A DNA stretch of 36,168 nucleotides from a bacterium (GTDB lineage: Bacteria; Patescibacteriota; Andersenbacteria; UBA10190; CAIZMI01): assembly GCA_030647555.1 (NCBI GenBank), contig JAUSJG010000007.1, forward strand, positions 1-36,168, given 5' to 3'. A program made the position numbers and the translations under genes. Of the stretch, positions 1 to 8,554 are shown one piece after another. The notes below the pieces were generated by a model. It ran no database searches and had not been told where the DNA came from. It saw only the letters and a program-made list of their open reading frames with translations. Within the stretch, counting starts at the first letter, position 1, and every line of letters begins with the position of its first letter.

Positions 1-46
1 TATTCTAAATCCGGCGCGAAAAGAAAGTTTTTCTGCGGTGTTGCGC

Positions 47-170
47 GCAGGGCGCGCGGTGGCGGGGCTGGCCTCCATTATTCGGTTACGTTCAGCCGTT
101 TCGCATAAAATGGGTTCGAGCCGTTTCAAAAAGACGCTCCAGAATCTGACTTTCCGTTTTTTGACCGCTA
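47..170. repeat. Dispersed ~125-bp repeat, copy A
   Basis: This is the first of three same-orientation copies of one repeat in the first 4.6 kb (B at 3320-3410, C at 4449-4567). A and C share about 120 bp, starting near GGCGCGCGGTGGC and ending at TTTTTTGACCGCT; B shares only the last ~90 bp. Inside each copy AGCCGTTTC occurs twice, about 25 bp apart. Read on the minus strand, one frame stays open in all three copies (it begins AVKKRKV and contains SVF, KRLEPI and ETAERN), so the repeat may be a coding remnant or a mobile module. In copy A this frame stays open to the window edge. Confidence 0.8.
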
Positions 171-215
171 GAATTTGACAAACTAATAACTTACGCCGAT
201 ACTAATCTTATAAAC

Positions 216-278
216 GTCCCCTCCTGATAACAAGAGCCCCTGGGCTCTGCCTCGCGAAAGCGAGGGTAGTCAGGGGGG
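216..278. other. Branched hairpin, possible terminator after the DUF3800 gene
   Basis: Two perfect hairpins (GAGCCC-CT-GGGCTC and CCTCGC-GAAA-GCGAGG) sit side by side and are enclosed by an outer stem between CCTGA near 223-227 and TCAGG at 270-274, giving a three-way junction. It begins immediately beyond the stop codon of the minus-strand DUF3800 gene, so it could end that transcript, although no clear T-run follows on that strand. Confidence 0.5.
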
Positions 279-983
279 TCATTGTTTTTTATACTGATAA
301 AATTCGGAATTACCTTTTTCGAAAATAGAAAATTGGGTTTTAATAATTTGATTTTGCTGAACAATGTCATATGAACGCGAATCGCCGGACTCCCACTTCC
401 GATAAATAGCCCAACCAAAATAATCTACCGCCTGATTGCACAAATCAAACTTTGAATCATGAAAATACAAAGCAAATGAGGTTTTTGCGTATTGTTTGAT
501 AAGTGACTTAAAAGTTTGTTTCAAAACTCCGCGTTTCTTTTTATCAAAGATGCTACTGAATACCAATACAACATGATCATATCCTTGCCATGTAGCGCGA
601 TTAAAAGAGTACTTTAACAACGCTTCGCCCATCTTCATGTATAACTCAACCGGTTGCTGATGAAACCGCGGGTTTGCCTTGTTTTTTTGCGCGATAACTG
701 AATCAATTCTCATTTGATGATCTGGCTTAACGATAATCGAAAAAACTTGATCTCGGACGGCCTGTGTATCTTCGGAGGCGTGAAAATATCCTCTTTCTTC
801 CATGCTTGTGCCACAACTGTAATTAGGCAGAAGATTGTAACGAAGATCTAAAAGCGGCGATGCAATATCAAATGGTTTTATGGCGCTTAGCGCCGTCAAA
901 ATAAAATATTTTGTCCCCGTCGGACTGAAATCAAAATTACCGGATTCATCAATGAAAATATAAAGGGTTTTTATATCTTCCAT
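279..983 (-). CDS. DUF3800 family protein
   Basis: The protein has 234 aa. The N-terminus carries the DUF3800 hallmark YIFIDESGNFDF (residues 8-19), with the Asp-Glu pair at 12-13. The C-terminal part has the matching acidic stretch (HDSKFD, then AVDYFGWAIYRKWESGD) that usually closes the domain. DUF3800 is regarded as having an RNase H-like fold and often lies on mobile or defence-related islands; its biochemical role is not settled, so a nuclease-like activity is inference. It is the last gene of a six-gene minus-strand run that starts at 3151, 47 nt downstream of the 131-aa membrane protein gene. A second DUF3800 protein lies at 4724. Confidence 0.8.
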   Translation of the reverse strand: MEDIKTLYIFIDESGNFDFSPTGTKYFILTALSAIKPFDIASPLLDLRYNLLPNYSCGTSMEERGYFHASEDTQAVRDQVFSIIVKPDHQMRIDSVIAQKNKANPRFHQQPVELYMKMGEALLKYSFNRATWQGYDHVVLVFSSIFDKKKRGVLKQTFKSLIKQYAKTSFALYFHDSKFDLCNQAVDYFGWAIYRKWESGDSRSYDIVQQNQIIKTQFSIFEKGNSEFYQYKKQ

Positions 984-1030
984 CTATCGTCAATAAATAT
1001 TTTATAGAGCATTTTATTCAATTATTAGAT

Positions 1031-1426
1031 TTACTTTTCTTTTTTCCTCAACTCATCTAGGTCAATATCTAAAATCATTTCAACTAAATCTTTTTGAGAT
1101 TGCCAAATGGTTTGTGTAATAGATATAACTTGTTCATTACTGCGGTCTTTGTCTAACTTCTCGGATAATTTATCGTTGCTTTCCATCACCATTTTTACAA
1201 GATTGCTTTCACGAACCAGTTGAATGTTCATCCTAAAACAAGAAAGCTTCCATGCCAAAATAAATAACGCTATTCCGATAACTCCAAATAAAATTTTACT
1301 CTTAAAATCACCAACAAATAAACCACCAAGGGAAACCAAACCCGCAACATACGTTAAAACTCCTATTGGTCCAAATTCTCTTAAAACTTTTATTAAACTA
1401 TCAGAAATTAATTTCCACATATTCAT
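1031..1426 (-). CDS. Small membrane protein with C-terminal coiled coil
   Basis: The family is not recognised. The 131-aa protein has two predicted membrane segments (about residues 20-38 and 44-62), then a charged helical tail (SNDKLSEKLDKD and onward) likely to form a coiled coil in the cytoplasm. Its start overlaps the stop of the preceding 62-aa gene by 4 nt, so the two are probably translationally coupled. The layout of two membrane helices plus an amphipathic tail resembles that of the 93-aa protein at 2870, though the sequences do not align well by eye. Confidence 0.75.
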   Translation of the reverse strand: MNMWKLISDSLIKVLREFGPIGVLTYVAGLVSLGGLFVGDFKSKILFGVIGIALFILAWKLSCFRMNIQLVRESNLVKMVMESNDKLSEKLDKDRSNEQVISITQTIWQSQKDLVEMILDIDLDELRKKEK

Positions 1427-1611
1427 ATCACAATTATTTTGCTAAAAAATAGCTCACCTGCCAATACGCCCTGTTTGTCCACAAATAATTTTTGTTCGAT
1501 CATATCTTTTATTGTTTCTTTTATAACCCCTTCTTCGAAAGACAACTTAGTGACTGTGTAGAGATACCCTCCGGCGGCCTCTATTTTATTAATTTTCAGC
1601 TCACGATTCAT
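1423..1611 (-). CDS. Small soluble protein, unknown
   Basis: The 62-aa product is not recognised. It begins MNRELKINKIE, has a charged helix in the middle (EEGVIKETIKDMIEQK) and ends hydrophobic (FFSKIIVI). No membrane segment or metal-binding motif is seen. It overlaps both neighbours by 4 nt, which is the best evidence that it is real and co-translated with the membrane proteins on either side. The helix followed by a short beta-like tail could be a small winged-helix fragment, but that is speculative. Confidence 0.65.
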   Translation of the reverse strand: MNRELKINKIEAAGGYLYTVTKLSFEEGVIKETIKDMIEQKLFVDKQGVLAGELFFSKIIVI

Positions 1612-2015
1612 CGCCTATTTAGAAGCAGATAAATCAATTCTAATACTAAGACAACAATTATTATTGAATTAATTGTTGACCAACCACTCTTTAAATAAAC
1701 AAAATACAATAAGCACAAAACGAGAAGACAGGGTATGCACCATTTTAGAAACTTTAGAATCCAAATAGAATATTTATACGCAAAGATCAAGATAAGATTA
1801 TTCGTTTCCTTTCCAGCTAATGTCCAACAAATCGGAGAACTTGATAAGATAATAAACTCAACAATTAAAAGGGTTCCTGGATATTGCGAATCTAGCACTC
1901 CTCTCAACAAGTAAACAGTTACGATGAGCCACCCAATCAATGGAATTAAGCCATAATCAAAATCGTAGTCATCAAGCACAACTTTATTCTTAGTAACAAG
2001 ATATGGGATGTTCAT
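1608..2015 (-). CDS. Four-helix membrane protein, unknown
   Basis: The 135-aa protein is dominated by four predicted membrane segments (about residues 23-40, 48-66, 85-106 and 113-131), with short loops and a basic C-terminus (LLNRR). No family is recognised. It starts 6 nt after the stop of the 253-aa gene and overlaps the next gene by 4 nt, so it belongs to the same minus-strand transcript. Base composition is visibly more AT-rich than the core genes further right. Confidence 0.7.
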   Translation of the reverse strand: MNIPYLVTKNKVVLDDYDFDYGLIPLIGWLIVTVYLLRGVLDSQYPGTLLIVEFIILSSSPICWTLAGKETNNLILIFAYKYSIWILKFLKWCIPCLLVLCLLYFVYLKSGWSTINSIIIVVLVLELIYLLLNRR

Positions 2016-2021
2016 ATAAAA

Positions 2022-2783
2022 TTATTTAATTCCAAAATTGTTCTTTAATTGTTTAACTTTTTCAGGATCTTCTGCTTTTTGAAGTTCTTTTTCGTATCTC
2101 TGTTTATTAATTTCCTTCTTTAATAATTCGAAATCTTTTAGCCAATCACCGTCTATGAAAGCCTCAACACCAAACTCACTCCACTCGCTGTCCATATCTG
2201 TATATTCAAGAGAGCAGTTTAAAGCTAATATTTTTGTTTCTTCTCTAAACAATTCGAGCAAGCCGTTCGTATTATTTTCTCCATCCGGTGTAACAAAAGT
2301 TGATTGATGAAATTCAAAACTGTAATTTTTTTCATTTAATACAATACTTGTAACTTCTTTTTCTTTCTTGTTTTCATTAGACTTCTTTCTAGACTTAGTC
2401 GCGTTAGTAATAATTTTTGGTACACACTCTCTTCCCTCATGTGCAATCCAGCTTGGATAGTATTTAATATCCCTAAAATAAAGTTTAGATATAAGTTCAG
2501 GAGCACCTTTCTGGTGGGCAATGTTTATACACTTCTCAACTTCCCCTTGAATCCGATATGCTTCTGTGCCCTCTCGAGGATTTGTACCAAAATAACTTAA
2601 AGGAAATTCATCGTCACTATTGTTTGTGTTACTTTTTTTAGCATTATTGTATCCATCGGTACCTGCATAAAAGAAAAAAGCAATCAACAAAGACCAAAAA
2701 ACACTCCAACCTAAACCGACTCCGAAGAATACCTCCAGTAAAAAAACAACTAAAAATACAATTATTGTAGCTAGTGAACGCAT
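2022..2783 (-). CDS. Membrane-anchored protein with large soluble domain, unknown
   Basis: The protein has 253 aa. Residues 5-45 form a hairpin of two membrane segments (LATIIVFLVVFLLEVFF, then WSVFWSLLIAFFFYAG). The rest is soluble, hydrophilic and rich in Lys, Glu and Asn, ending in a charged helix (KEINKQRYEKELQKAEDPEK). The family is not recognised. It is the largest product of the five-gene run and the most likely to carry its activity or recognition role. It lies 86 nt downstream of the 93-aa gene and 6 nt upstream of the 135-aa gene. Confidence 0.7.
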   Translation of the reverse strand: MRSLATIIVFLVVFLLEVFFGVGLGWSVFWSLLIAFFFYAGTDGYNNAKKSNTNNSDDEFPLSYFGTNPREGTEAYRIQGEVEKCINIAHQKGAPELISKLYFRDIKYYPSWIAHEGRECVPKIITNATKSRKKSNENKKEKEVTSIVLNEKNYSFEFHQSTFVTPDGENNTNGLLELFREETKILALNCSLEYTDMDSEWSEFGVEAFIDGDWLKDFELLKKEINKQRYEKELQKAEDPEKVKQLKNNFGIK

Positions 2784-2869
2784 GCCACTATAAACTTTCT
2801 ATCAAAATACATTTATTTATAATATTTCATAATTTTATACAACTAATTCACTAAAAGCAGGCTGTTGTG

Positions 2870-3151
2870 TTATTTACTTAACTGTTCATTTATTTTTGAA
2901 ATTTCTCTTTTCAGTGGTTCCACTTCCTCAGCTACCTGTTTTTTTACCATACGATTAAATTTTTCCATTAATGGTTTTCTTAACAACAAGGAGGTCACAA
3001 TGATTGCTATTAACCAAACACTTTCAGAAGAAAAATTCATTATTTCACTCATGAACGAAATAATAAAATAACCCACTAAAACCGGAATACCATATATAAA
3101 AATATACAACAACAGAAATGGCCAAATTTCGTAAAGTTCGCGTAGTTTCAT
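2870..3151 (-). CDS. Small two-helix membrane protein heading the cassette operon
   Basis: The family is not recognised. The 93-aa protein has two or three hydrophobic stretches (residues 11-34 and 44-57), followed by a basic and acidic amphipathic helix (KPLMEKFNRMVKKQVAEEVE and onward) likely to be a cytoplasmic coiled coil. It is the first gene of the minus-strand run 3151-279. A promoter with its -10 box 6 nt before the ATG points to a leaderless transcript beginning at this start codon. Confidence 0.7.
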   Translation of the reverse strand: MKLRELYEIWPFLLLYIFIYGIPVLVGYFIISFMSEIMNFSSESVWLIAIIVTSLLLRKPLMEKFNRMVKKQVAEEVEPLKREISKINEQLSK

Positions 3152-3186: not shown

Positions 3187-3319
3187 GAGACTAACTCATG
3201 TCATCCCCATCAAAAAGCGCCGTCGCTAAAAACCCGTTGCGTCCACGTTCGGATGTCGCGCGGGGGGGGCACGCTCGAACGACTACGAATGTTGCTCCAC
3301 TTTGTTCGCGGTTTGGTTT

Positions 3320-3410
3320 CGTTCAGCCGTTTCGGATAAAATAGGTTCGAGCCGTTTCATAAAGACGCTCCAAGACCTGACTTTCCGTTTTTTGACCGCT
3401 TTTGCAGACT
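3320..3410. repeat. Dispersed repeat, copy B (shorter)
   Basis: About 90 bp, from the TTCAGCCGTTTCG motif to TTTTTTGACCGCT, matches copies A and C with a few substitutions. The ~30 bp upstream part shared by A and C is missing and replaced by unrelated sequence. The spacer 3187-3319, between the cassette promoter and this repeat, holds no recognised gene and is GC-rich compared with the membrane genes. Confidence 0.8.
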
Positions 3411-3614: not shown

Positions 3615-3638
3615 GGTATTGGACGATCTTCACCCTTA

Positions 3639-3817
3639 GGCCTCGTCCATAAATAAATTTCCCATCTTATACTCACTGCATCTTTAACTGCAAGTACTTC
3701 TCAATCGTAAAACCTCTCACCGTACTGCTAGTACGCCTCAAGGTTTTACTCAATCAAAGTCCTCACATTTAAAGCGCATTGAGCATAATCTTGGGGAATT
3801 TATTTACGGACGAGGCC
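3639..3817. mobile_element. 179-bp MITE, family 1 copy 1
   Basis: This is a non-coding element that folds into one long hairpin. The termini are inverted repeats (GGCCTCGTCC... and ...GGACGAGGCC, continuing about 25 bp), and the centre is a small palindrome around GTACTGCTAGTAC. It is flanked on both sides by TTA (3636-3638 and 3818-3820), a 3-bp target duplication. A nearly identical copy lies at 8369-8547 with TAA duplications. TNA duplications with GG-starting ends are known for some IS5-family groups, so mobilisation in trans by such a transposase is a reasonable inference; no transposase is present in the window. Confidence 0.85.
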
Positions 3818-3821
3818 TTAG

Positions 3822-4439: not shown

Positions 4440-4448
4440 GGAGGCGCA

Positions 4449-4567
4449 AGGCGCGCGGTGGCAGGGCTGGCCTCCGTTGTTCGATTACGTTCAGCCGTTT
4501 CGGATAAAATGGGTTCGAGCCGTTTCAAAAAGACGCTCCAAGATGTAACTTTCCGTTTTTTGACCGC
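4449..4567. repeat. Dispersed ~120-bp repeat, copy C
   Basis: This copy matches copy A over about 120 bp (GGCGCGCGGTGGC... to ...TTTTTTGACCGCT) with scattered substitutions, in the same orientation. It has replaced the natural 3' end of the HEPN-like gene and precedes the second DUF3800 gene by about 155 bp. Its 5' part with the bases just before it forms a GGAGGC...GCCTCC hairpin. Confidence 0.8.
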
Positions 4568-4570
4568 TTT

Positions 4571-4709
4571 TTTCGTTGGCAACGCCCGACGCCGAGTTTT
4601 GACCCATTCGACGCCACTCAGGGTTTACCCCGAGCAATCGTCGAGGGGTAAACAACCGCGCCTCCCAACGCGAACAGCGCGACCAAATCTGAACGGAACA
4701 CAAATAGTG
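4571..4709. other. Non-coding spacer with a 9-bp hairpin
   Basis: Between repeat C and the promoter of the next gene there is no convincing gene. It contains a hairpin GTTTACCCC...GGGGTAAAC (4623-4631 with 4645-4653). The frame running in from the HEPN-like gene is open here but looks random. Confidence 0.5.
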
Positions 4710-4723: not shown

Positions 4724-5302
4724 ATGAATCAAACTATACAAAAACTATATTGTTATGTTGACGAAACGGGACAGGACGCCAGATCGAGTGTATTTATTGT
4801 TGCGGTGGTGGTGAGCGAACAAGAACAAAATACGGTACGTCAACAAATTTTGAAGGCTGAACAAGAATCGGGTATTGGTCTTAGTAAGTGGAGTAATGCC
4901 GGTCAAAACAGGAGAATCAAATTTTTAAACATTGCACTTGAGCGAAATATTGGCAGTGAAGATTTGTTTTACGCCTCCTACAAAAAACCTATTCCCTTCT
5001 TTTTTCCAATGCTTGATCTCACGGCTAAAGCAATAAGAGCAAAAACTAAAAAGGAATACAAAATTAAAGTGTACGTTGATGGTATTGACCGCAAAAAGGC
5101 ACGGGAACTGACAAACGCCCTGCGAATTGGAGGCATCTCGTTGGAGATGGTCAAAAGCAGACGCGACGAAAGTGAACCTTTTATTCGTTTGGCTGACCGG
5201 TGGGCGGGTTGCGTACGAGCCGGGCTAGAGGGAAACAAAGAAGCAAGGTTTTTGGTTGAAAAGGCAAAACAAGAAAAATATCTACGAGAAATCGAACACT
5301 AA
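4724..5302 (+). CDS. DUF3800 family protein, second copy
   Basis: The 192-aa protein has the N-terminal motif YCYVDETGQD (residues 9-18), equivalent to the DESG motif of DUF3800 proteins, then a hydrophobic strand SVFIVAVVV. The C-terminal signature EPFIRLADRWAGCVRAGLEG matches the family's usual closing helix with a conserved Asp. It shares little sequence with the DUF3800 protein at 279 beyond these motifs, so it is not a recent duplicate. Its start overlaps by 4 nt (ATGA) the chance extension of the HEPN-like frame, but its own -10 box suggests separate transcription. An RNase H-like nuclease role is inference from the family fold. Confidence 0.8.
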   Translation: MNQTIQKLYCYVDETGQDARSSVFIVAVVVSEQEQNTVRQQILKAEQESGIGLSKWSNAGQNRRIKFLNIALERNIGSEDLFYASYKKPIPFFFPMLDLTAKAIRAKTKKEYKIKVYVDGIDRKKARELTNALRIGGISLEMVKSRRDESEPFIRLADRWAGCVRAGLEGNKEARFLVEKAKQEKYLREIEH

Positions 5303-5304
5303 AA

Positions 5305-5365
5305 AACCTCGGCTATTCCCTTGCGGGACCAATCATCGCCGAAACGGGCGAGCCTTTGCCGAGGT
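5305..5365. terminator. Terminator between convergent units
   Basis: ACCTCGGC (from 5306) pairs with GCCGAGGT (5358-5365) around a loop with smaller pairings. On the minus strand the stem is followed by six T (complement of 5301-5306), so it can end the FtsB operon arriving from the right; it also follows the DUF3800 stop directly. Confidence 0.65.
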
Positions 5366-5411
5366 CTTATGAAGTTAACCTAGCCCAAATTACAAATCCT
5401 GTCAAGGTCGC

Positions 5412-7394: not shown

Positions 7395-7404
7395 AAAGTT
7401 TTTA

Positions 7405-7583
7405 GGGCTTGGTAATTAATAAACGCTTCAATATTATGTTCAATGCGCTTCAAAGACGACTGTCTTTGATTGAACAAAATCTTGAGACGTACTATAAGTA
7501 CGTTGAAAGATTTTTGATTGAGAAGCAGTTGTATTTGAAGATGGATTGGACATAAGATGAAGCGTTTATTAATTACCAAGCCC
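7405..7583. mobile_element. 179-bp MITE, family 2 copy 1
   Basis: It has exactly the same length and internal layout as the family 1 elements and aligns to them without gaps on the opposite strand, sharing the centre GTACTTATAGTAC and flanking blocks. Its ends differ: GGGCTTGGTAATTAATAAACG with the exact inverted partner. Flanks are TTA on the left and TAA on the right. Just beyond the right end, AATTACC(A/G)AGCCCT is tandemly duplicated (7571-7598), perhaps a footprint of an earlier insertion. It sits between the stop of one gene and about 10 nt upstream of the start of the next. Confidence 0.85.
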
Positions 7584-7596
7584 TAATTACCGAGCC

Positions 7597-8325: not shown

Positions 8326-8368
8326 ATGAAAATGCACCCTTACAGCATACCACAAAATGGGCACATAA

Positions 8369-8547
8369 GGCCTCGTCCGTAAATAAATTCCCCATCTTAT
8401 ACTCACTGCATCTTTAACTGCAAGCACTTTTCAATCGTAAAACCTTTCACCGTACTGCTAGTACGCCTCAAGATTTTACTCAATCAAAGTACTCACATTT
8501 AAAGCGCATTGAGCATAATCTGGGGGAATTTATTTACGGACGAGGCC
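8369..8547. mobile_element. 179-bp MITE, family 1 copy 2
   Basis: It is almost identical to the element at 3639-3817, same length and orientation, with about a dozen substitutions. It is flanked by TAA on both sides (8366-8368 and 8548-8550), a 3-bp target duplication. The terminal inverted repeats are GGCCTCGTCCGTAAATAA. It lies 43 nt upstream of the membrane-protein gene at 7597-8325 and has separated that gene from whatever preceded it. Confidence 0.85.
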
Positions 8548-8554
8548 TAAAAAC

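What the first reader, a model, noticed from the sequence alone, without database searches (positions are those of the whole stretch)
279..3151. Uncharacterised cassette: five small, mostly membrane proteins plus DUF3800
Six consecutive minus-strand genes (93, 253, 135, 62, 131 and 234 aa) are tightly packed, with 4-nt overlaps among the middle ones. Four are membrane proteins with cytoplasmic coils or domains, one is a tiny soluble protein and the last is DUF3800. None but DUF3800 is recognisable. The run is AT-rich, has one promoter at its head, and is bounded by two copies of a dispersed repeat. Membrane parts plus a possible RNase H-like nuclease is a layout seen in several anti-phage systems, so this is the best candidate for an undescribed conflict or stress system. 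Function is inference.
Basis: partly seen in the sequence, partly recalled or inferred. Interest (0 to 1): 0.7.

Follow-up and report, generated by a model that had tools for sequence, protein, structure and literature searches.

The report
DUF3800 nuclease with its own RNA
The supposed six-gene membrane cassette is not a conserved system; hidden at its end is a small, strongly structured RNA gene that travels with one of the proteins, a predicted RNA/DNA-cutting enzyme, across about twenty bacterial phyla and often sits inside anti-virus restriction operons.

Summary
The six ORFs are real, but the six-gene 'system' is not supported: none of the five small, mostly membrane genes lies near any other DUF3800 gene examined, and a 45%-identical relative of one of them occurs alone elsewhere. 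What is conserved was missed. At 212-280, on the strand opposite DUF3800 and overlapping its stop codon, lies a three-way-junction RNA. A covariance model of it matches 85 of 88 loci encoding close DUF3800 relatives (about twenty phyla, phages); 84 of 85 lie on the opposite strand, median 9 nt from the stop. In 380 genomes searched blind, its only 5 matches lie beside the five best DUF3800 hits. Base-pair covariation is strong. The nearest Rfam family, DUF3800-IX, scores below threshold, so this is a new class of a known, unexplained kind. The protein is predicted to fold like RNase HII. Relatives sit between hsdS and hsdR or after a prophage repressor. My best reading is a nuclease controlled, probably restrained, by its cognate RNA as an accessory anti-phage module. 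Pairing is near certain; defence is likely; RNA restraint is inferred. The five other genes are probably island passengers.

The parts
175..203 (+). Predicted sigma-70 promoter of the RNA gene (TTGACA-17-GATACT)
   Evidence: Joint-highest score in the block, 10 of 12, and correctly spaced for the RNA; promoter-like sites are enriched at this place in 84 loci: mean 7.56 against 6.55 shuffled, maximum 6.74
212..280 (+). DUF3800-associated three-way-junction RNA; its 3' end overlaps the DUF3800 stop codon (279-281) and is followed by TTGTTTTTT
   Evidence: Fold z-score -5.2; covariance model R2 59.1 bits; 85 of 88 homologous loci carry it; covariation; weak RF02968 match, 19.2 bits
279..983 (-). 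DUF3800 protein, 234 aa, predicted RNase HII-like fold
   Evidence: PF12686, 41.1 bits; AlphaFold mean pLDDT 91.9; best PDB match RNase HII 1eke, E 5e-6; D12, E13 and D187 invariant in 69 relatives
1031..1426 (-). 131-aa protein, two membrane segments plus coil; probable passenger
   Evidence: relative occurs singly in another genome
1423..1611 (-). 62-aa soluble ORF; probable passenger
   Evidence: no family match
1608..2015 (-). 135-aa protein, four membrane segments; probable passenger
   Evidence: only a weak partial hit in 230 genomes
2022..2783 (-). 253-aa protein, N-terminal membrane helix; orphan; probable passenger
   Evidence: model without confidence, pLDDT 48.7
2870..3151 (-). 93-aa protein, two membrane segments plus coil; probable passenger
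   Evidence: only a weak partial hit in 230 genomes
45..172 (+). Dispersed repeat copy 1 (att-like site containing CGCTCCA, the 3' end of tRNA-Gly)
3276..3403 (+). Dispersed repeat copy 2
4444..4571 (+). Dispersed repeat copy 3
4724..5302 (+). Second DUF3800 protein, 192 aa, distant from the first
   Evidence: PF12686 28.6 bits against cut-off 21
5299..5368 (-). Predicted RNA partner of the second DUF3800 gene: same place, same opposite strand
   Evidence: Stable fold; best Rfam match again RF02968, 19.2 bits, below threshold; not matched by model R2 at E 0.1, so a different class

Best explanation
The functional unit is not six genes but two: the DUF3800 gene (279-983, minus strand) and a small RNA gene (212-280, plus strand) that ends inside its stop codon. 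SHOWN: the pair is inherited together across about twenty phyla, the RNA folds into a conserved three-way junction, and it has its own promoter and terminator signals. PREDICTED: the protein has an RNase HII-like fold with invariant acidic residues. INFERRED: the two form a ribonucleoprotein in which the RNA controls the nuclease, most likely holding it inactive until a phage or another mobile element disturbs the balance, whereupon it cuts nucleic acid. It would thus be an RNA-restrained accessory defence layer, comparable in logic to RNA antitoxins (ToxIN) and in genomic position to PrrC inside type I restriction operons. The five upstream ORFs and the second DUF3800 gene are other cargo of the same serine-recombinase island at tRNA-Gly.
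For: Pairing: R2 matches 85 of 88 DUF3800 loci. In 380 genomes it gives 5 matches, exactly the five genomes with the best DUF3800 hits (E 3.9e-28 or better), and none in the 13 genomes with only distant DUF3800 genes. RNA and protein distances co-vary (Mantel r 0.51; maximum of 1000 permutations 0.23). RNA nature: 97.9% of cells paired against at most 61.4% when slid; 254 double changes against 63 shuffled; hairpin-loop types GNRA and UUCG interchange; promoter enrichment, and a T-run in 61 of 85 against 25 expected. Unit size: DNA similarity to the Gottesmanbacteria, Zixibacteria and Nitrospiraceae loci runs only from the RNA's 5' end to the DUF3800 start (209/211-971/975). Nuclease: pLDDT 91.9; RNase HII is the best fold match; D12, E13, G15 and D187 invariant. 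Defence context: HsdR is the next gene downstream in 10 loci checked singly (L077, L091, L103, L109, L110, L116, L136, L140, L145, L146), HsdS upstream in L083, L091, L120, L145 and L146, type III Mod and Res around L081, McrBC at L119. In Gordonia phages Kenna and Lutum the pair follows the immunity repressor; phage Morkie lacks it there. Decay asymmetry: three loci with a broken protein gene (L070, L125, L132) keep a good RNA, whereas of 87 testable loci only L149 and L151 have a weak, divergent RNA and none clearly lacks one.
Against: No functional data. Many relatives lie beside housekeeping genes rather than defence genes (L070 between rpe and ffh; L079, L100, L122, L129). The pair is rare on plasmids (3 records), unlike classic addiction modules. 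The RNA is downstream on the opposite strand and usually single copy, unlike type III antitoxins. The fourth candidate metal ligand (D143 in 56 of 69) is serine in the window's own copy, so that copy may be catalytically altered. Decay asymmetry also fits a cofactor RNA, and MAG errors can mimic broken genes.
Confidence: 0.45

Rival explanations
1. The RNA is an activating cofactor or guide: DUF3800 is an RNA-dependent nuclease (OMEGA-like or Cas-accessory-like) and the RNA licenses or directs cutting instead of restraining it.
For: RNase H-type fold; obligate RNA partner; DUF3800 proteins are reported with Cas12a2 and in VI-F and V-A2 loci (PMC10910872; PMC12669027).
Against: No room for a guide: the RNA starts 5-10 nt after the predicted -10 box, ends in a T-run, and its single-stranded parts are conserved rather than variable. 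One RNA per genome in the five genomes where it was found.
Confidence: 0.22
2. The structure is only a shared bidirectional terminator, or an antisense regulator of DUF3800 mRNA (type I-like), with no protein contact.
For: It lies at the 3' end of the gene on the opposite strand and has terminator features.
Against: Unpaired junction bases (AAA at the 5' end, the UAG near the 3' stem) are invariant or nearly so across phyla, which a terminator does not need. In L128 the RNA is inverted, on the gene's own strand, yet keeps 49.9 bits. L144 and L145 have two copies.
Confidence: 0.13
3. DUF3800 plus RNA is a selfish or homing element; the hairpin is mainly a DNA or RNA substrate for its spread.
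For: Very wide horizontal spread; insertion between housekeeping genes; minimal transferred unit.
Against: No conserved terminal sequences outside the RNA and gene; promoter, terminator and tetraloop swaps point to a transcribed RNA; one copy per genome.
Confidence: 0.1
4. The six-gene cassette as written by the first reader is a membrane-plus-nuclease defence system.
For: Two 4-nt overlaps, one strand, shared low G+C, and the block lies between two repeat copies, so the six genes and the RNA may have arrived together.
Against: None of the five genes near 24 plus 88 other DUF3800 loci; a p131 relative is alone elsewhere; DUF3800 plus RNA occurs without them at 79% identity.
Confidence: 0.05

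Closest known systems
DUF3800 RNA motifs of Rfam, nearest RF02968 (DUF3800-IX)
   Same: Small structured RNA with outer stem, two hairpins and a UA before the closing strand, next to a DUF3800 gene; 27.5 bits for a typical relative and 19.2 for the window copy.
   Different: Below the gathering score (36.8) in all 20 relatives scanned and in the window; conserved 5' AAAGGUUCC, GAUAA and UAGUC are not in the IX consensus. The window's copy belongs to a separate class defined here (88 matches).
DUF3800 proteins accessory to Cas12a2 / type VI-F CRISPR loci
   Same: DUF3800 domain with RNase H fold, linked to immunity and to RNA (PMC10910872, PMC12669027).
   Different: Here there is no TPR domain, no Cas effector and no CRISPR array; the protein is a lone 230-aa domain with its own RNA.
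PrrC / RloC anticodon nucleases embedded in restriction operons
   Same: Potential RNA-cutting enzyme nested inside type I R-M operons (PMC3874165, PMC2610378).
   Different: Different fold; PrrC is silenced by the restriction complex, not by a dedicated RNA; many DUF3800 copies are not in R-M operons.
Type III toxin-antitoxin (ToxIN)
   Same: Nuclease protein paired with a dedicated structured RNA (abstracts seen).
   Different: ToxI is a repeated pseudoknot co-transcribed with its toxin; here a single three-way junction on the opposite strand downstream.
RNase HII
   Same: Best solved-structure match to the predicted fold; N-terminal D-E-x-G motif in the same style.
   Different: About 12% identity, TM-score 0.46, no PDB relative by sequence.

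Membership tests
Pfam DUF3800 (PF12686) | Profile score above the curated cut-off | tested here: met
   41.1 bits (279-983) and 28.6 bits (4724-5302) against 21
Rfam DUF3800-IX RNA (RF02968) | Covariance score at or above the gathering score of 36.8 | tested here: not met
   19.2 bits in the window, 27.5 in L081, none of 20 loci at gathering
DUF3800-associated RNA (as a kind) | Conserved structured RNA consistently next to DUF3800 genes | tested here: met
   85 of 88 loci; 5 of 5 matches in an unconditioned search; covariation
Type III toxin-antitoxin | RNA upstream of and co-transcribed with the toxin, as a repeat array | tested here: not met
   RNA is downstream on the opposite strand; single copy except in L144 and L145
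Type III toxin-antitoxin | Protein toxic alone, neutralised by direct RNA binding | not testable with these tools
   needs expression and binding assays
RNase H-fold nuclease, RNase HII-like | RNase H fold | tested here: met
   Confident model; 1eke E 5e-6, probability 1.00
RNase H-fold nuclease, RNase HII-like | Complete set of four acidic metal ligands | tested here: inconclusive
   D12, E13 and D187 invariant; D143 in 56 of 69 but serine in the window; assignment of the fourth ligand rests on alignment only
PrrC-type restriction-linked effector | Gene between hsdS and hsdR | tested here: inconclusive
   Met in some relatives, both partners Pfam-confirmed in L091, L145 and L146; not in the window
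OMEGA / TnpB / IscB RNA-guided nucleases | Variable guide segment attached to the RNA scaffold | tested here: not met
   The whole RNA between promoter and terminator is conserved
Six-gene conserved system | The genes co-occur in other genomes | tested here: not met

The most novel reading that the evidence does not exclude
A widespread, undescribed class of RNA-restrained nuclease: a lone DUF3800 protein kept inactive by a 65-nt three-way-junction RNA, spread across about twenty phyla and phages as a roughly 770-bp unit and repeatedly plugged into restriction operons as a back-up suicide or anti-phage layer.
Probability: 0.35. Interest if true: 0.85.

Novelty: new variant of a known kind. Interest (0 to 1): 0.62.

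Why it matters
DUF3800 RNAs have been catalogued for years without a function. Here one protein subfamily and one RNA class, absent from Rfam at its thresholds, are tied together without exception in an unbiased search. They have a fixed geometry, a confident nuclease fold and repeated placement inside restriction operons and a prophage immunity region. That turns an annotation puzzle into a directly testable question: does the RNA restrain or activate the nuclease, and does the pair stop phages?

Tried and rejected
(1) A six-gene system: rejected by context searches. (2) The PHROG 'bacteriocin production or immunity' match of the 131-aa protein (E 0.0012): too weak, probably membrane-plus-coil similarity. 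(3) A viral-contig relative of the 253-aa protein (L064): a chance 27-residue stretch in a terminase-like ORF. (4) Structure of the 253-aa protein: no usable model. (5) The structure as a terminator only: rejected on conserved junction bases, tetraloop exchange and the inverted copy in L128. (6) The first promoter test used wrongly placed RNA starts and was repeated with covariance-model coordinates. (7) My first regular-expression extraction of the RNAs mis-assigned a few loci (L093, L113, L144, L150); model coordinates replace it. (8) The original paper on DUF3800 RNA motifs could not be read, so the claim of a new class rests on Rfam 15 only. (9) No PDB relative by sequence.
Full report
WHAT WAS CHECKED. 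The window is bases 1-36168 of a 172-kb contig (C7) of a 1.32-Mb genome; its relatives indicate Patescibacteria. Two 4-nt overlaps are real, but there are also gaps of 6, 47 and 86 nt. The block has 33% G+C against 42% for the rest. Pfam knows only DUF3800; PADLOC lists it as DUF3800_VII (E 8e-11). The other five have no convincing family. No promoter at the head of the run stands out; the well-placed one is on the opposite strand at 175-203.

THE SIX GENES ARE NOT A CONSERVED SYSTEM. The 253-aa protein has no credible relative in 380 genomes of the phylum, in plasmids or in phages; the single viral-contig hit is chance. The 135-aa and 93-aa proteins gave only weak partial hits in 230 genomes each. 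The 131-aa protein has a 45%-identical relative in G074, beside unrelated genes. None of the five occurs beside any of the DUF3800 genes in the loci fetched from the phylum or from genome and viral collections. DUF3800 itself is patchy (18 of 380 genomes) and its neighbours differ widely between loci.

THE MISSED PART: AN RNA GENE. A low-threshold Rfam scan of the first 5.6 kb gave three matches. The best is DUF3800-IX RNA at 218-283, plus strand, 19.2 bits, at the stop codon of DUF3800. Alone this is weak (gathering score 36.8), but the stretch folds into a three-way junction at -38.6 kcal/mol, z -5.2. The strand opposite other DUF3800 genes, just after the stop, shows the same kind of structure in most of 24 loci, and one of them is a genuine DUF3800-V RNA at 69 bits.

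HOMOLOGUES. A scan of 84,980 species with a seven-sequence DUF3800 alignment gave at least 286 relatives; the best 80 loci span about twenty phyla by record title, and viral contigs gave 8 more. The closest are 59-79% identical (Gottesmanbacteria, Nitrospiraceae, Shapirobacteria, Zixibacteria, Omnitrophota). I aligned 51 RNAs: AAA-x-GUUCC, outer stem, GAUAA, hairpin 1, hairpin 2, UAG, outer stem, GGUC. A covariance model (R2) finds the RNA in 85 of 88 loci. The three without a significant match are L153 (contig ends 3 nt after the stop), L149 and L151, and the last two keep weak remnants or divergent forms. All 85 are on the strand opposite the gene except L128; the median distance of the RNA 3' end from the stop is 9 nt. 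The model was built from many of these loci, so that count alone is partly circular. The independent test is the search of 380 phylum genomes without reference to the protein. It gave five matches, and these are the five genomes with the strongest DUF3800 hits. The thirteen genomes with more distant DUF3800 genes have none.

IT IS AN RNA. On 86 distinct sequences 97.9% of cells pair, against 38-61% when partners are slid; double changes number 254 against 63 in shuffles; pair 10-117 uses GC, CG, AU and UA about equally. The hand-set structure on the first alignment gives the same answer. Loops exchange among GNRA and UUCG types. Upstream sequence is enriched in promoter-like hexamers at the right place (mean 7.56 against 6.55 shuffled, 5.81 random), and a T-run follows in 61 of 85 against 25 expected. 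In the window the promoter is TTGACA-17-GATACT. In L128 the RNA is inverted to the gene's own strand yet conserved, and L144 and L145 have two copies, so a purely antisense role is unlikely. RNA and protein divergence correlate (r 0.51, permutation maximum 0.23).

UNIT AND CONTEXT. DNA similarity between the window and the loci of the same subclade is confined to the RNA plus the DUF3800 frame (209/211 to 971/975). This fits a minimal unit, though selection on both parts would give the same picture. In Zixibacteria the pair sits between rpe and ffh. Elsewhere HsdR lies directly downstream (ten loci checked singly), HsdS directly upstream (five checked), type III Mod and Res flank it (L081), McrBC is adjacent (L119), while some loci have only housekeeping neighbours. 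In temperate Gordonia phages Kenna and Lutum the pair follows the immunity repressor with a 4-nt overlap; phage Morkie has repressor and metalloprotease adjacent with nothing between.

PROTEIN. The model from 69 sequences is confident (pLDDT 91.9, pTM 0.90). Foldseek's only matches better than 0.001 are RNase HII structures. D12, E13, G15, R77, K100, Q184, D187 and W191 are invariant. A fourth likely metal ligand, D143 in 56 of 69, is serine in the window's copy; the window protein may therefore be catalytically altered. Published work already calls DUF3800 an RNase H fold 'with a catalytic rearrangement' and links it to ncRNAs and to rare CRISPR loci (PMC10910872; PMC12669027).

MECHANISM. 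Shown: obligate pairing, RNA structure, RNA-specific conservation, defence-linked placement of many relatives. Predicted: nuclease fold. Inferred: RNP formation, RNA control, anti-phage role. I favour restraint over activation because there is no guide segment, because three loci keep the RNA after losing the protein frame (L070 frameshift, L125 and L132 in-frame stops) while no intact protein clearly lacks RNA, and because nuclease genes nested in restriction operons (PrrC, PMC3874165; PMC2610378) are latent effectors. None of these is decisive; a cofactor model explains the asymmetry nearly as well, and MAG errors can fake broken genes.

ISLAND. Synteny with a congeneric and a confamilial genome suggests that C7 and C4 are neighbours and that the block lies in an island between a conserved hypothetical gene and tRNA-Gly(CCC)-tRNA-Thr-prfB-ftsE-ftsX. 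C4 starts with the same 139 bases as C7 and carries a large serine recombinase flanked by about 150-bp inverted repeats beginning at CGCTCCA, the 3' end of tRNA-Gly. The dispersed repeats contain the same core and separate blocks of cargo. The join itself is inferred.

VERDICT.

Noticed in passing
C4:1-1946 of the same genome (L008), adjoining window 1-172: A large serine recombinase gene is flanked by about 150-bp near-perfect inverted repeats that begin with the tRNA-Gly 3' end (CGCTCCA). Direct copies of the same core at window 45-172, 3276-3403 and 4444-4571 separate blocks of cargo, suggesting a serine-recombinase island with reusable att-like sites.
   Followed up: partly
window 4724-5302 (+) and 5299-5368 (-): A second, distant DUF3800 gene has its own structured RNA in the same geometry; best Rfam match DUF3800-IX, 19.2 bits, below threshold; not matched by model R2.
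   Followed up: partly
L034-L036, L038, L042 (DUF3800 loci of G100, G116, G082, G342, G334) and L012, L032, L043: More distant Patescibacteria DUF3800 genes have other recurring RNA shapes just after the stop on the opposite strand (one with GUGGGGCUCCGUAUGGUUCCUC, another with GCGAAAGUAGGCUUCAUGCCUUGCG); neither gave an Rfam match. They may be further undescribed DUF3800 RNA classes.
   Followed up: no
window 3638-3818, 8368-8548, 7402-7586: MITE-like elements of about 180 bp with 26-29-bp terminal inverted repeats (AGGCCTCGTCCGTAAATAAATTCCCC; TTAGGGCTTGGTAATTAATAAACGCTTCA).
   Followed up: no
L160 / L161 4641-4700 (Gordonia phages Kenna and Lutum): DUF3800 plus RNA directly downstream of the immunity repressor in temperate phages; phage Morkie lacks it at the same place.
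   Followed up: partly
L128 2322-2384; L144 3828-3897; L145 3920-3991: Natural variants: an RNA inverted relative to its DUF3800 gene (L128) and second RNA copies (L144, L145).
   Followed up: partly
L070, L125, L132: DUF3800 reading frame broken by a frameshift or an in-frame stop while the adjacent RNA is intact; sequencing error not excluded.
   Followed up: partly
L008 1861-1934, L019 5178-5249, L020 4196-4270: tRNA-Gly(CCC) is inverted relative to its neighbours in the window's genus compared with a genome of another genus in the same family.
   Followed up: no
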